Virus record (IMG/VR): IMGVR_UViG_3300037993_000184
Location: 1 to 24,472 of that record
From: a virus
Length of the DNA: 24,472 nucleotides
Strand: one strand, 5' to 3'
Below the pieces are notes generated by a model that had not been told where the DNA came from, searched no databases, and saw nothing but the letters and a program-made list of their open reading frames with translations. Shown in pieces: positions 3,903 to 21,691 of this stretch (position 1 is its first letter; each line of letters opens with the position of its first letter). The position numbers and the translations under genes were made by a program.

Positions 3903-4135
3903 TGAGCGAAGCGGTTGACCACCCTGAACATTACGGCGGTGCCGATAATCCCTATGAGGCGATCAAGGTAATCGAGGCGTGGGGACTTGGGTTCTGCCTT
4001 GGCAACACCGTTAAGTACATCAGTCGCGCCGGGAAGAAAGACGACACAGACACGCTCACCGATCTCAAGAAAGCCCGTTGGTATCTGGACCGGGAAATCC
4101 AAAACAAGGAGGGAAAACAAAATGGAGTTCGTTAA
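3902..4135 (+). CDS. DUF3310 protein
   Basis: The 77-residue product has the hallmarks of DUF3310: VDHPEHYGG near the start, then YEAIKVIEAWGLGFCLGN, TVKYISRAGKKDDTDTL and DLKKARWYLDREI. DUF3310 is widespread in phages, often beside nucleotide-metabolism genes and sometimes annotated as a nucleotide-kinase-like protein, but its biochemical role is not established. It starts on the base that ends the previous stop (TAATG) and overlaps the ThyX start by 14 bases, so the three genes are translationally linked. Confidence 0.9.
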   Translation: MSEAVDHPEHYGGADNPYEAIKVIEAWGLGFCLGNTVKYISRAGKKDDTDTLTDLKKARWYLDREIQNKEGKQNGVR

Positions 4136-4913
4136 ACCGAAAGTTTTTCACGTTGCACAGACACGAATTATCGAGAGCGGGATGCAGGGCTACTTTGATG
4201 CCTTGGGAATCCCAGACTGGGTAACCGACGCGCCAACTGATGCAGAGCGATTAGTAGAAGTCATGGGCCGGGGATGCTATCGCTCATTCCAAGCAGGGAT
4301 GAATAAGAACGTGACGAAGATTCGTGAAGGTAACGCCGTTTACATAGGCAATATCCTGAACACAAAGCATGGTTCTGTGATTGAATGTGCAACTGACAGT
4401 TACATCTTCCTAGACGCCTCTCGTGTGCTGACCCATGAACTTGTTCGCAATCGCGTCGGCAATTCCTTTTCGCAGGAGAGTCTCCGCTATGTGCGCCTAG
4501 ACGCTTTGAAGGGATATTTCCCGCGAGTGTTCGAAGAGCATCCGAAGAAAGATCAACTGATGGCTTTCTTTAAGGCTACGTTTGAGTTGCTAGAGGGCGC
4601 GCAGGTTCAACTGGCGCAGATTCTCGAACTGGACGCGATTAAGGAATTCGACACTAAGAAGAGACTCACCTCTGCGATGCGACGGCTGGCTCCGATTGGT
4701 CTTGCTACGATGATCGGCTACACTGGCAACCACCGCTCGATTCGTTGGGCAATCGAACAACGCACCGACAAGGTGGCCGAAGAAGAGATTCGGTTGGTAT
4801 TTGGAGAAGTAGCTGAGGAGCAGCGACGCTGCTATCCAAATCTTTATCAGGATATGACCGGAGAGATGGTGGACGGATTTATGAAGTATTCGTTCGTCAA
4901 CTCTAAAATTTAG
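4122..4913 (+). CDS. thyX: Flavin-dependent thymidylate synthase ThyX
   Basis: The 263-residue product carries a ThyX signature in the form RNRVGNSFSQESLRYV (family pattern RHRxxSxNExSxRY), preceded by SRVLTHELV and followed by a late TGNHRSIRWAIEQR segment that fits the C-terminal dUMP/FAD-binding region. ThyX makes dTMP from dUMP using FAD and methylenetetrahydrofolate, and phages carry it to supply thymidylate for replication. The start at ATG 4122 follows GGAGGG by 8 bases; the longer in-frame extension back to 3987 lies inside the DUF3310 gene and is rejected. In this signature the second His of the canonical RHR is replaced by Asn (RNR). Confidence 0.92.
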   Translation: MEFVKPKVFHVAQTRIIESGMQGYFDALGIPDWVTDAPTDAERLVEVMGRGCYRSFQAGMNKNVTKIREGNAVYIGNILNTKHGSVIECATDSYIFLDASRVLTHELVRNRVGNSFSQESLRYVRLDALKGYFPRVFEEHPKKDQLMAFFKATFELLEGAQVQLAQILELDAIKEFDTKKRLTSAMRRLAPIGLATMIGYTGNHRSIRWAIEQRTDKVAEEEIRLVFGEVAEEQRRCYPNLYQDMTGEMVDGFMKYSFVNSKI

Positions 4914-4924
4914 ATAGGAGAGGC

Positions 4925-5020
4925 ATGACGTACTTATTGGCCGTTGGTTTGATGGCTAGCGGAGTACTCCTGTGGCTGCTTGATTTGGCTTATACGGCAG
5001 GCAAGGATAGGGCGCAATGA
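4925..5020 (+). CDS. 31-aa single-pass membrane peptide
   Basis: ATG 4925 follows GGAGAGGC after a short gap and encodes 31 residues beginning MTYLLAVGLMASGVLLWLLD and ending in a charged tail (TAGKDRAQ). About residues 3-23 form one hydrophobic segment. The stop overlaps the next start as ATGA (5017-5020). Very small membrane proteins are common in phages as lysis or host-takeover factors, but nothing here fixes the role. Confidence 0.7.
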   Translation: MTYLLAVGLMASGVLLWLLDLAYTAGKDRAQ

Positions 5021-5823
5021 GCATAGACTCGAATCACGCGCAGTACGAAGGTACGGCACGCCGTGATCTTCTGGTGCAATCCCGTTTTCGCAACCTGATT
5101 TTATGGGAAGCGATGGCTGGACGTAACAGCGCCGAGGTCTGCCGCGAGATTAAGATAAACCAAGCGGTATTTGGTAAATTGCTTAATTTAAGAATAAGCC
5201 CATTTAAGAAATACTGCACAACAGAGGAAAGAACCTACACGCGAGCCGCGCTGGCCATAGCGAAGCATTTTAAAATTTTGCCGGAAGATATGTTTCCAGA
5301 AAGTCTCTACTCGCTTGAACTTCCTGACAAAGTAGAACGCAGCTACGCTAGTGTAGAACTTCTTCCCCTTCTGGCAGCAGCACGGATGCCAACCCTGCTT
5401 AGTTCCCCGGAAGAGGAGACTGAGAAAATTGAACTAAAGTCCGTACTGGAAGAACTTCTTCATACCGTAACACCAAGAGAGGAGCGTATTATACGAATGC
5501 GTTTTGGTTTGGAGGATGGCGAAGAACATACGCTTAATGATGTCGCTAGCGTTTTTAATCTTACAACAGAGAGAATTCGCCAGATCGAAACTAGGGCGCT
5601 GCGCAAGCTGCGCCACCCAAGCCGCTCGGAGAAACTGACGCATCACTATTACGGAGCTGAAGAATTTTGCCCGTTCTGTAAAGAACGCCTTATGGATGGA
5701 CAATGTAAAAACATTTTATGTCCCTCAAGGATGGCAAAACAACTAGCAGAGGAGGCTAAGAAAAAGCACGAGGCCGAGATTCAGAAACTGAAACTCGCGC
5801 ACCAGCACGGGGAGGCGGCATGA
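5017..5823 (+). CDS. XRE-type HTH fused to sigma70 region 4 and zinc ribbon
   Basis: This 268-residue protein has three parts. Residues about 24-95 resemble an XRE helix-turn-helix, ending in IAKHFKILPEDMFPE. Residues about 137-207 are a principal-sigma region 4: TPREERIIRMRFGLEDG, HTLNDVASVFNLTTERIRQI and ALRKLRHPSRSEKL, nearly identical in style to RpoD. Residues 218-235 form a four-Cys ribbon (CPFC, C230, C235), followed by a charged coiled coil. Regions 1-3 of sigma are absent, so it cannot melt promoters alone. It may occupy the beta flap or -35 element and redirect host polymerase, as sigma-appropriating phage proteins do. This is inference; a similar XRE-sigma4 layout is, from memory, recurrent in phages. 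Confidence 0.85.
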   Translation: MSIDSNHAQYEGTARRDLLVQSRFRNLILWEAMAGRNSAEVCREIKINQAVFGKLLNLRISPFKKYCTTEERTYTRAALAIAKHFKILPEDMFPESLYSLELPDKVERSYASVELLPLLAAARMPTLLSSPEEETEKIELKSVLEELLHTVTPREERIIRMRFGLEDGEEHTLNDVASVFNLTTERIRQIETRALRKLRHPSRSEKLTHHYYGAEEFCPFCKERLMDGQCKNILCPSRMAKQLAEEAKKKHEAEIQKLKLAHQHGEAA

Positions 5824-12186: not shown

Positions 12187-12354
12187 ATGGATCGTAAGCC
12201 AACATCATTCCGTCTGACTACGACAGCGATAAGGCTACTCGGCCTTTTAGCAGAATCTCTCGGCCTTTCGCAGGCGGGCGTTATCGAGACGGCCATTCGT
12301 GAGTTGGCAAAACAGAACCTACCTTCAGTGATTCCAACGGAGAGGCCGGAATGA
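12187..12354 (+). CDS. Ribbon-helix-helix regulator
   Basis: The 55 residues beginning MDRKPTSFRLTTTAIRLLGL have the RHH pattern: a short beta strand (TSFRL) then two helices (LAESLGLSQAGVIETAIREL). RHH proteins bind operators as dimers and often autoregulate a two-gene unit. The next gene starts within its stop (ATGA, 12351-12354), so the two are an operon. ATG 12187 is chosen over GTG 12169, which lies inside the promoter. Likely controls this operon, by inference. Confidence 0.8.
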   Translation: MDRKPTSFRLTTTAIRLLGLLAESLGLSQAGVIETAIRELAKQNLPSVIPTERPE

Positions 12355-12989
12355 AATCTAGTAATGCGATGGCAATTAGTGAACCAACTAACGGGGCAAA
12401 AGAGACAATCGAAATCGGGTTGCCGTACATCGTCCAAGTGACGATTGAGGGATCGTCCGATTTACTACTTCACGCCTGGAACGTAGAGGCTGTCGAAGCC
12501 AAAGGCGCAGCCAAGAAAGGCTCTGAAGCTAAAAAGACGGACAATTTAGAATCTTATGTTCTCCGCAACGAAGATGGTGTAATCTGTCTCCCGAGCGAGT
12601 ATCTTCGCATGAGCACCGTCAACGCCGCCAAATTTCGGCAGGACCCGCGCAGCCCACGGAAAAGCGCGATGGATTTGTACAAAGCGGCTCTGATTAGCCT
12701 CAAGCCCCTTGTTCCCATTACGACCGTTACGGGAGAAATACCAAAAATTTGGGATTACGAACATCGCTGCCGTGTACAGGTCCAGCGTAGCGGTATCACA
12801 CGGACGCGGCCTGCGTTTCGTGAAGGATGGAAGTGTACAGTCCCCCTGTTAGTGAGTCTCCCTGAATATATTTCGCCGCGCGAATTGAACGATTGTATAG
12901 CGGCGGCAGGAAGATTAACAGGAGTTGGCGATTTCAGACCGACGTATGGACGTTTTCAGGTTATCGGTTTTGAAATCCAAAAAGATTGA
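12351..12989 (+). CDS. Uncharacterised phage protein with RAMP-like glycine loop
   Basis: The 212 residues contain VQVTIEGSSDLLLHAWN (29-45), SEYLRMSTVNAAKF (82-95), an invariant-looking RTRPAFREGW (151-160) and a C-terminal AAGRLTGVGDFRPTYGRFQV (185-204). I know similar sequences as a recurrent, unnamed phage family but cannot give a database name. The last motif, GxGx6GRF, resembles the glycine-rich loop of RAMP-fold RNA-binding proteins (Cas5/6/7 type); this is a hypothesis, not a homology call. The gene is cotranscribed with the RHH regulator, and its stop codon lies in a hairpin leading into a pentanucleotide array. Confidence 0.65.
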   Translation: MKSSNAMAISEPTNGAKETIEIGLPYIVQVTIEGSSDLLLHAWNVEAVEAKGAAKKGSEAKKTDNLESYVLRNEDGVICLPSEYLRMSTVNAAKFRQDPRSPRKSAMDLYKAALISLKPLVPITTVTGEIPKIWDYEHRCRVQVQRSGITRTRPAFREGWKCTVPLLVSLPEYISPRELNDCIAAAGRLTGVGDFRPTYGRFQVIGFEIQKD

Positions 12990-13012
12990 CCCGTGCAGTA
13001 TGATGGGTCAAT
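12985..13012 (+). repeat. Hairpin spanning the stop codon before the array
   Basis: ATTGACCC (12985-12992) and GGGTCAAT (13005-13012) form a perfect 8-bp inverted repeat with a 12-base loop. The left arm includes the TGA of the preceding gene and the right arm ends 2 bases before the first array unit. No T tract follows, so it is not an ordinary terminator. Confidence 0.7.
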
Positions 13013-13014
13013 AT

Positions 13015-13114
13015 ATGGTCTGGCAAGGTCTGGTCCGATGTGGTTAGCTCCGGTTCGGCGTGGTGCGGTCGGGTATGCCTTGGTCAGGTAAGGTGAGATG
13101 CGGTATGGCGAGGT
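13015..13114 (+). repeat. NNGGY pentanucleotide array, 20 units
   Basis: Exactly 100 bases fall into 20 consecutive in-phase pentamers. Position 3 is G in all 20 and position 5 is T or C in all 20 (16 T, 4 C). Position 4 is G in 16 of 20. Positions 1 and 2 vary almost freely. Thirteen units read NNGGT and three NNGGC; the four deviants (units 5, 7, 13 and 17) change position 4 only, two to A and two to C. The period is not a multiple of 3 and no gene is read through it. Hairpins bound it: 12985-13012 before, and a 5-bp GATTC/GAATC stem (13123-13137) after. Confidence 0.9.
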
Positions 13115-13164
13115 CCCAAAAGGATTCTCAGTGAATCATAAACAAATTGAAAAGGAGAAACACA

Positions 13165-13626
13165 TTGACCAATCCCACAAATTTCACAAATCCTTTGAGC
13201 GGTTTTGAGGTTGTTGAGGATGTTCTATCCCAAATTCGTAAACGGCTTCACACTGATTGCTCCTTAAGGAAAGAAGACGGATATACAGGAGGTTACTCTG
13301 GCACTGTCAAGATCAAATTGAATCTGCACGCCGTCCGCATCGCTGAAGTCGAGATGGAGATTCCGATCACAACGGGCGTCAAAGCCCCCGGACCCGAAGC
13401 CTTTGCGCCAGAGGATGTGGTCGCGGTAGAGGTAGAGGATGAAATTGTGATTTCGCTGGAGCCAAACCTGAAAGCAGTTCGCGAGAGAACCGCCGAGAAT
13501 AACGCGGAACCTCTACAAGAAACCGAACCAACTCCAGAACCTGAACAGCCCGAAACAAGCATCAGTCAGAAGCGCCGCTACGAGCGCCAACAGGCGATGG
13601 CTGGCGCTGTGACCGATCAGGGATAA
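13165..13626 (+). CDS. Uncharacterised protein with acidic C terminus
   Basis: The TTG at 13165 lies 9 bases after AGGAG, whereas the upstream in-frame TTG 13147 contains that SD within its own codons, so 13165 is preferred. The 153 residues have a beta-rich middle (GTVKIKLNLHAVRIAEVEME) and an acidic Pro/Glu tail. No family is recognised. It follows the pentanucleotide array and may be expressed from the same transcript. Confidence 0.65.
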   Translation: MTNPTNFTNPLSGFEVVEDVLSQIRKRLHTDCSLRKEDGYTGGYSGTVKIKLNLHAVRIAEVEMEIPITTGVKAPGPEAFAPEDVVAVEVEDEIVISLEPNLKAVRERTAENNAEPLQETEPTPEPEQPETSISQKRRYERQQAMAGAVTDQG

Positions 13627-18376: not shown

Positions 18377-19195
18377 TCACACTTCGTCGAATAAAGATAG
18401 CTGATCAGAAACAGGCTCCTTCCTCTTTGTGCGGCCTTGCATGAGGGCGACGATTCTCTTTCGCTCGTTCTCGTTACTCCCATTGCTCTTCCATAAGTTC
18501 GCCGCCATCGAAATTACCCACACATTGCCGCTCACATACCCAAGTTCGGGCACGATTTTATCGACACTAGGCCAACAACGTCGGTCAGGACCAGCGTTGT
18601 AATCCAAGCGAATGTTAGGGAAGATCGGGCATGATTCTGGCAACGCACCAGTATTTTTATCGAGGAGGTCTAAAGGATTCATGTTAAACGGAATTCCGCT
18701 TTTCAGAGCACGGTCCTTGATCCTATATATTTTCTGTTTTGCCCAGTTCTTTATTTTCCATGCCCTTCTCAGTTCCGCGCGCCGCTTTGGATGTTTTTCG
18801 TCGTAAGTTTTTGTATTTTTTTTATTTAGTTCGCTAATACGTTCAGGATGTCTCGCTCTGGATTCGCGGGATCGCCGATTGGCCTCTTTCCTATCCTCTG
18901 CTTCCGCAACGCACTTTTTGCAGCGTGCTCGGCGTCCGCTTGGCGTATTTGCGTCTTTACTGAAACTATCGAGAGGCAGGTCCTGTCTGCATTTAGTGCA
19001 AACTTTATGGCGCAATTGAAGATCATTCTCTTCAAGCAGTTCTCGTAGTGTTTTTTGTGGTTCTTGCTTGTCGTCGCTCTCCTCACATGCGGTTTCATCT
19101 TCGGTTGGAAGGTCTGGCTCAAATGCAAATTTAACCACGGACCAATCTGAAGGAAGTCCTTTTTCGGGGTAGAATGATTTAAGTGGGAGTGTCAT
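18377..19195 (-). CDS. HNH-type homing endonuclease
   Basis: The 272-residue minus-strand product has an N-terminal CTKC/CKKC zinc motif (about residues 66-95), a long Arg/Lys-rich helix, and a C-terminal HNH-like core: SCPIF, SVDKIVPELGYVSGNVWVIS, then NLWKS. This pattern matches phage HNH endonucleases. The start at 19195 has the SD GGAGAAA just upstream; the longer frame to 19297 has none. It is the only minus-strand gene in the head module and looks inserted between portal and capsid genes. Confidence 0.82.
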   Translation of the reverse strand: MTLPLKSFYPEKGLPSDWSVVKFAFEPDLPTEDETACEESDDKQEPQKTLRELLEENDLQLRHKVCTKCRQDLPLDSFSKDANTPSGRRARCKKCVAEAEDRKEANRRSRESRARHPERISELNKKNTKTYDEKHPKRRAELRRAWKIKNWAKQKIYRIKDRALKSGIPFNMNPLDLLDKNTGALPESCPIFPNIRLDYNAGPDRRCWPSVDKIVPELGYVSGNVWVISMAANLWKSNGSNENERKRIVALMQGRTKRKEPVSDQLSLFDEV

Positions 19196-19355
19196 GTCGT
19201 TTCTCCGAACGATGAGGCTCTGGCCGGACGTTTCCGCGTCCGACACTCCCATTCTACAACACAAGCGATGAGATAGCGAAACACTTTTTGCGGCCATGGA
19301 AGGCGCAGGATAAAGAAAAAAGGAACCTTACAATACAACATTTATAAAAAAGTTC

Positions 19356-21067: not shown

Positions 21068-21691
21068 ATGTGGGTAAGAGAAAATAAGCCGGGTCTTGAA
21101 CCAATCAAGGTGCCAACCGCCATTGATGTTGCATGGGCTGCAGGAATTTATGAAGGCGAGGGTACTTGCTCAATCAAGGGAGGCAGCAGCGGTAAGGGAT
21201 CGTACAGCACTACCGTTTCGCAGAAGGACCCTGAATTGTTGTACAGGCTGCGCGATTTATTCGGCGGATCGGTCAACCTTTATAAAGTTGGAACGAAGAG
21301 AAAATTTGAAGTTCATCACTGGCTAGTAAGTGGCGACAAAGCAAGAGGATTTCTTGCGGCAATTTACCCTTTTCTCACTTGTAGAAGGAAAGCGCAGATT
21401 GATGCAACGAACGCCAGATTTTTTCTGGAGTATGCGAGTGACCTCCTTCGTATTAACTATTCTGATCCTTGTTCACGTTTCCAGATGATTCTCGCAAAAG
21501 TTCAGGAGTTTCGGTCTTTTGTTAAGTACGAGAACAAGAGTAAGCGCGCAGAGTACACGCGAAACTGGCAGAACAAGAAATATCGCGAAGACCCTGTGTA
21601 CCGCTCACGAAGATTAGCAGCGAAGAGAGAAGCAAAGCGATTGAAGCGAGAACAAAAACTGCACGTAGTCGAGATGCAAAAAACAGCATAG
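21068..21691 (+). CDS. LAGLIDADG-family homing endonuclease
   Basis: Residues about 23-36 (WAAGIYEGEGTCSI) match a LAGLIDADG motif, with the acidic residue in GEG used for metal binding. The 207-residue single-motif protein would act as a homodimer. LFGGSVNLYK and a basic C terminus (KRLKREQKL) follow. It has its own SD (GGGAGG) and sits between the scaffold and capsid genes. Such genes cut homologous DNA lacking the insertion and spread by repair. Confidence 0.85.
   Translation: MWVRENKPGLEPIKVPTAIDVAWAAGIYEGEGTCSIKGGSSGKGSYSTTVSQKDPELLYRLRDLFGGSVNLYKVGTKRKFEVHHWLVSGDKARGFLAAIYPFLTCRRKAQIDATNARFFLEYASDLLRINYSDPCSRFQMILAKVQEFRSFVKYENKSKRAEYTRNWQNKKYREDPVYRSRRLAAKREAKRLKREQKLHVVEMQKTA

What the first reader, a model, noticed from the sequence alone, without database searches (positions are those of the whole stretch)
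13015..13114. In-phase NNGGY pentanucleotide array of 20 units in a non-coding gap
Twenty consecutive 5-base units have G at position 3 and a pyrimidine at position 5 without exception, G at position 4 in 16 of 20, and nearly free positions 1-2. Free positions beside fixed ones look like selection on spacing and contacts, not slippage of a simple repeat. The 5-base period rules out a protein repeat. Possible roles: a platform for a protein that contacts every fifth base of single-stranded DNA or RNA, a two-tetrad G-quadruplex (GG every 5 bases), or a packaging or recombination site. I have seen GG-spaced pentamer tracts in other phages but cannot verify that here.
Basis: partly seen in the sequence, partly recalled or inferred. 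Interest (0 to 1): 0.9.

Follow-up and report, generated by a model that had tools for sequence, protein, structure and literature searches.

The report
Phage VIPR guide-RNA array beside Vipr
The odd five-base repeat is almost certainly the guide RNA of a recently described phage-borne, CRISPR-like silencing system (VIPR): its fixed GGY bases are the scaffold held by the neighbouring Vipr protein and its variable base pairs spell out a DNA target, probably in a competing phage.

Summary
The array is real: 20 in-phase NNGNY units at 13015-13114, 16 of them NNGGY; the longest run in 200 shuffled windows was 8. It is not a DNA platform or a G-quadruplex. It matches the vrRNA of VIPR, a system described in a 2026 preprint (PMC13142463): tandem YNNGG guide RNAs bound by Vipr, a small RAMP protein, whose NN dinucleotides pair with DNA using a 1-nt skip. 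The ORF just upstream (12351-12989) is Vipr: its family profile hits only 'SUSP1 Vipr protein' in the PDB (E 1.3e-11), and its predicted fold matches CRISPR RAMPs. Of 28 non-redundant homologues, 27 carry such an array within 60 nt of the vipr stop, on the same strand. All 75 strong arrays lie within 1.5 kb of vipr, none in the other 173 kb. Phase, G3 and Y5 are kept while NN changes completely, even at 77-79% Vipr identity. An independent test on 490 arrays favours the 1-nt skip: 39 guide-target pairs, versus 0, 1 and 2 for other skips. All 16 pairs inside rival vipr genes put the skip at the wobble position. No target was found for this guide. Verdict: a new member of a known kind.

The parts
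13015..13114 (+). vrRNA repeat region: 20 in-phase NNGGY units (16 perfect). The NN dinucleotides, read in order AT CT AA CT CC GT TA CC TC GT GC CG AT TT CA AA GA GC AT GA, are the predicted guide.
   Evidence: composition, shuffles; same element after vipr in 27 of 28 homologous loci; PMC13142463 (vrRNA definition)
12351..12989 (+). vipr: 212-aa RAMP-family protein (phrog_4652), the predicted vrRNA-binding effector. Its C-terminal motif GVGDFRPTYGRF is a candidate glycine-rich loop.
   Evidence: PDB 36pp 'SUSP1 Vipr protein', E 8.8e-6 and 1.3e-11; Foldseek: CRISPR RAMPs; tblastn to the SUSP1 and SUSP2 phages
12187..12354 (+). candidate vap: about 55-aa ribbon-helix-helix-like DNA-binding protein (the listed ORF starts at GTG 12169), overlapping the vipr start codon (ATGA)
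   Evidence: phrog_3887 transcriptional regulator, E 2.9e-6; Pfam RHH_1, below cut-off; homologues beside vipr in L126, 68%, and L123, 47.5%
12985..13012 (+). perfect 10-bp stem with an 8-nt loop spanning the vipr stop and lying just 5' of the array. Stem and loop motif (TGCARTATGAT) are kept in relative L126 but absent from the other relatives.
13115..13145 (+). possible short 3' tail of the vrRNA (CCCAAAA plus a 5-bp hairpin, 13123-13137); weak
   Evidence: sequence not conserved in relatives, so uncertain

Best explanation
The array is the repeat region of a single vrRNA, the guide RNA of a phage-encoded VIPR system made of vap (about 12187-12354), vipr (12351-12989) and vrRNA (13015-13114). 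Inferred mechanism, shown for the SUSP1 system in PMC13142463 and carried over here by homology: the transcript is bound by several Vipr subunits, probably one per five-nt unit. Each subunit holds the conserved GGY, so those bases do not pair. The exposed NN dinucleotides pair with double-stranded DNA, two bases read and one skipped, so 20 units would read about 60 bp. Binding blocks transcription of a gene in a competing phage, satellite or prophage. Shown here: the array, the adjacent Vipr homologue with a RAMP fold, their co-occurrence in relatives, hypervariable NN in a fixed frame, and statistical support for the 1-nt skip rule in this wider family. Not shown here: expression of this RNA, binding, and its target.
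For: Literature match: YNNGG tandem guide RNAs next to a RAMP gene in phages (PMC13142463). Vipr identity: PDB 36pp_D 'SUSP1 Vipr protein', E 8.8e-6 with the single sequence and 1.3e-11 over positions 26-196 with the family profile, the only PDB hit; tblastn to phages SUSP1 and SUSP2 at E 2e-4. Fold: AlphaFold2 model pLDDT 80.6; the 48 PDB matches with E <= 1e-3 are type III and type VII CRISPR effector (RAMP) chains such as Csm, Cmr and gRAMP. Linkage: array within 60 nt of the vipr stop, same strand, in 27/28 homologues; 75 strong arrays within 1.5 kb of vipr (100 kb searched), 0 in the other 172.6 kb; array near vipr in 34/36 bacterial-genome loci. Pattern over 802 units: G3 97%, G4 79%, Y5 93%, positions 1-2 near random. 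Skip rule: 39 guide-target pairs for skip 1, against 0, 1 and 2 for skips 0, 2 and 3, and 4 for unit-shuffled guides (excluding three pairs of the window's own guide that were fetched by pattern). 16/16 hits inside rival vipr genes place the skip at codon position 3.
Against: No target found for this guide: five 8-unit seed scans of IMG/VR gave only chance-level hits, an 11-unit scan of GTDB genomes gave none, and tblastn with codon readings gave nothing convincing. 20 units exceeds the 9-16 in the paper, and 4 of 20 units lack G4. The paper's conserved structured 3' tail is not clearly present. TM-scores to RAMPs are moderate (about 0.5). The source paper is a preprint, and most guide-target pairs come from a small, partly redundant set of loci around vipr.
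Confidence: 0.95

Rival explanations
1. A cis-acting RNA or DNA protein-binding tract with TRAP-like spacing, or a packaging or recombination platform, where positions 1-2 are mere spacers and do not encode a target.
For: Fixed contacts every five bases, as for a multimeric RNA-binding protein such as TRAP (from memory); the array lies in the late gene cluster after the terminase.
Against: It travels with vipr rather than with packaging genes, also in bacterial genome records. NN of such arrays match DNA in other phages far more often at a 1-nt skip than at other skips or with shuffled guides, with the skip at the wobble position in 16/16 vipr hits; spacers would not do this.
Confidence: 0.03
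2. A decayed, non-functional vrRNA remnant.
For: 4 of 20 units lack G4; a single array; no target found.
Against: G3 and Y5 are perfect in 20/20, and G4 at 80% equals the family average of 79%. Vipr is intact, with its invariant residues kept.
Confidence: 0.06
3. A two-tetrad G-quadruplex tract.
For: GG every five bases.
Against: G4 is lost in about a fifth of units across 802 units while Y5 is kept at 93%. A quadruplex needs GG but not Y5, fixed phase or a linked RAMP gene.
Confidence: 0.01

Closest known systems
VIPR type II (Escherichia phage SUSP1; PMC13142463; PDB 36pp)
   Same: Phage-encoded; small RAMP protein of about 200 aa; adjacent non-coding YNNGG arrays; small DNA-binding accessory gene; skip rule supported in this clade.
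   Different: Vipr matches SUSP1 Vipr only distantly (E 1.3e-11 by profile). There is one array of 20 units instead of four vrRNAs of 9-16, G4 is looser (79% in this clade), the Vap is RHH-like, no clear conserved structured 3' tail was seen, and a 5' hairpin is shared with L126 only.
CRISPR-Cas class 1 RAMP effectors (Csm3/Cas7, type VII Cas7, Cmr)
   Same: RAMP fold by Foldseek; inferred oligomerisation on a guide RNA with periodic unpaired positions.
   Different: No CRISPR repeats or cas genes were noted beside the array, and the guide is a gapped pentamer code with no contiguous spacer.
phrog_4652 (unknown function)
   Same: All 27 aligned members of the clade match this family.
   Different: The family carries no functional annotation; this analysis suggests it is Vipr.

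Membership tests
VIPR | Vipr protein homologous to known Vipr | tested here: met
   PDB 36pp 'SUSP1 Vipr protein', E 1.3e-11 over profile positions 26-196, the only hit; 8.8e-6 with the single sequence
VIPR | RAMP fold (RRM core, G-loop, thumb) | tested here: met
   Foldseek to CRISPR RAMPs, best E 8.8e-6, TM about 0.5; conserved G(V)GDFRPTYGRF near the C-terminus. The thumb was not inspected separately.
VIPR | vrRNA of tandem YNNGG units next to vipr, NN hypervariable | tested here: met
   20 units, 26 nt after the vipr stop; 27/28 homologues alike; NN unrelated between close relatives
VIPR | 9-16 units per vrRNA | tested here: not met
   20 units here. The paper gives 9-16 for its analysed vrRNAs and describes varied array architectures in other types, so this is taken as descriptive, not defining. 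Relatives show 5-84 units in a run.
VIPR | conserved, structured 3' tail | tested here: inconclusive
   only a 5-bp hairpin follows; one vrRNA in this phage, and flanks differ between relatives
VIPR | vap accessory gene | tested here: met
   RHH-like ORF overlapping the vipr start; homologues beside vipr in L126 and L123. Which of vap1-6 it is could not be tested.
VIPR | 1-nt skip target rule | tested here: inconclusive
   supported for the wider family: 39 pairs versus 0, 1 and 2, and 4 for shuffled guides; no target found for the window's own guide
VIPR | RNA expressed and bound by Vipr; transcriptional repression | not testable with these tools
   needs wet-lab work
VIPR types I-VII | type assignment by Vipr phylogeny | not tested

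The most novel reading that the evidence does not exclude
This clade (RHH-type Vap, one long 20-unit guide reading about 60 bp, looser G4, and a 5' hairpin with a kept loop at the vipr/vrRNA junction in place of a clear 3' tail) is a distinct VIPR variant in which the 5' hairpin defines the RNA end or acts as the Vap operator.
Probability: 0.15. Interest if true: 0.5.

Novelty: new member of a known kind. Interest (0 to 1): 0.45.

Why it matters
It places an unexplained repeat in an uncultivated phage inside a newly described RNA-guided system, names phrog_4652 as probable Vipr, and gives independent support from public viral contigs for the 1-nt skip code. It also adds examples of phages aiming guides at rivals' vipr genes, with the skipped base at the wobble position. 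The system itself is already described, so the gain is confirmation and extension.

Tried and rejected
Rfam and RNA folding of the array: nothing. Tandem Repeats Finder does not see the array. The guide read as antisense codons resembled the downstream 159-aa protein (C..R..DGYTG), which suggested a homologous gene as target; at DNA level the best match anywhere in the window is only 22/40, and that protein has no relatives beyond a near-identical record, so this was dropped. IMG/VR 8-unit seed hits, including two 9-unit matches (L159; L174 = L176), do not extend and fit chance, given about six hits per 8-unit seed. tblastn of 20-aa codon readings in phages: only Listeria hits at E 6-8. Position-4 deviations show no clear preference for array position or neighbouring NN. 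Low-complexity guides such as L036 inflated the first skip test and were removed.

Full report
Observation. The array is as described. Window 13015-13114 holds 20 in-phase units with G3 20/20, Y5 20/20, G4 16/20 and near-free positions 1-2; the longest comparable run in 200 shuffled windows was 8. It is non-coding, has no Rfam match and no unusual RNA fold. It lies between a 212-aa ORF (12351-12989) and a 159-aa ORF (13147-13626).

How common. Such arrays are therefore a widespread class.

Literature. A full-text search found a 2026 preprint, PMC13142463 (no other paper in the library). It describes VIPR: a small RAMP protein (Vipr), accessory genes (vap), and vrRNAs of alternating GGY/NN whose NN dinucleotides pair with double-stranded DNA, skipping one target base per unit. 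It reports programmable repression and natural targets in satellites, prophages and other VIPR systems.

The neighbour is Vipr. The 212-aa ORF matches PDB chain 36pp_D 'SUSP1 Vipr protein' at E 8.8e-6. A profile of 27 homologues finds only that chain, E 1.3e-11, over positions 26-196. The SUSP1 and SUSP2 phages are hit by tblastn. The AlphaFold2 model (pLDDT 80.6, pTM 0.73) matches CRISPR type III and type VII effector RAMPs, best E 8.8e-6, TM about 0.5. All 27 homologues belong to phrog_4652, of unknown function. The ORF upstream is a short RHH-like protein with homologues beside vipr in L126 and L123; it is the likely Vap.

Relatives. In 27 of 28 non-redundant homologues an array starts within 60 nt of the vipr stop on the same strand; the exception, phage DSL-LC04, has arrays upstream only. 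All 75 strong arrays lie within 1.5 kb of vipr and none in the remaining 172.6 kb. Of 36 bacterial-genome loci, many from Phycisphaerales, 34 also have an array near vipr. Over 802 units G3 is kept at 97%, Y5 at 93% and G4 at 79%, while positions 1-2 are near random. L123 and L124, with Vipr 79% and 77% identical, keep the frame but share no NN order with the window.

Skip rule tested independently. 490 guides from 222 loci (1.94 Mb) were compared with the same loci outside arrays, asking for at least 9 of 10 consecutive NN matches. A skip of 1 gave 42 pairs from 17 guides; skips 0, 2 and 3 gave 0, 1 and 2; unit-shuffled guides at skip 1 gave 4. Three of the 42 involve the window's guide and loci fetched by that very pattern, so 39 pairs from 16 guides count. 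They are not all independent, since some loci are near copies. Sixteen pairs fall inside vipr genes of other phages, all antisense and all with the skipped base at codon position 3. The locus set is enriched in vipr genes, so this does not show that vipr is the main target.

This guide's target is unknown. Five seed scans of IMG/VR and one scan of GTDB genomes gave nothing above chance. Targets may lie in phages that have not been sequenced.

Differences from the described systems. There are 20 units rather than 9-16, a single array, no clear conserved 3' tail, and a 10-bp hairpin between vipr and the array that is shared with L126 (stem and loop motif kept) but not with the other relatives. 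The type within VIPR could not be assigned because supplements were out of reach.

Conclusion. The finding is a genuine vrRNA array of a VIPR system, a new member of a known kind. What is shown is anatomy, homology, linkage and code statistics. What is inferred is expression, Vipr binding and repression of a competitor.

Noticed in passing
12985-13012; L126 4576-4600: Hairpin at the vipr/array junction with a kept loop motif TGCARTATGAT in L126 but in none of the other vipr loci; possibly an RNA end or an RHH operator.
   Followed up: partly
L154, L142 and L130 guides to L146, L155, L143, L139, L127, L135, L144: Predicted guides of several phages match vipr genes of other phages, antisense with the skip at the wobble position.
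   Followed up: partly
L185 from 3803 to L179, L180, L181, L182, L183, L198: A Phycisphaerae guide matches 15 of its first 17 units in the same flanking region, a few hundred bases upstream of vipr, of six other loci.
   Followed up: no
5017-5823: Phage-encoded sigma-70 region 4 protein (Pfam E 1.2e-16), possibly a late-gene sigma factor.
   Followed up: no
3987-4913: ThyX-type thymidylate synthase gene (PF02511, E 1.9e-27).
   Followed up: no
21068-21691 and 18377-19297: Two ORFs inside the structural gene cluster that look like homing endonuclease genes by eye (LAGLIDADG-like; HNH-like); no Pfam endonuclease match.
   Followed up: no
phage DSL-LC04, OR003939.1 22429-23046 (L157 4001-4618): A gene annotated as a helix-turn-helix transcriptional regulator is a full-length Vipr homologue (52.6% identity), so probably misannotated.
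   Followed up: partly
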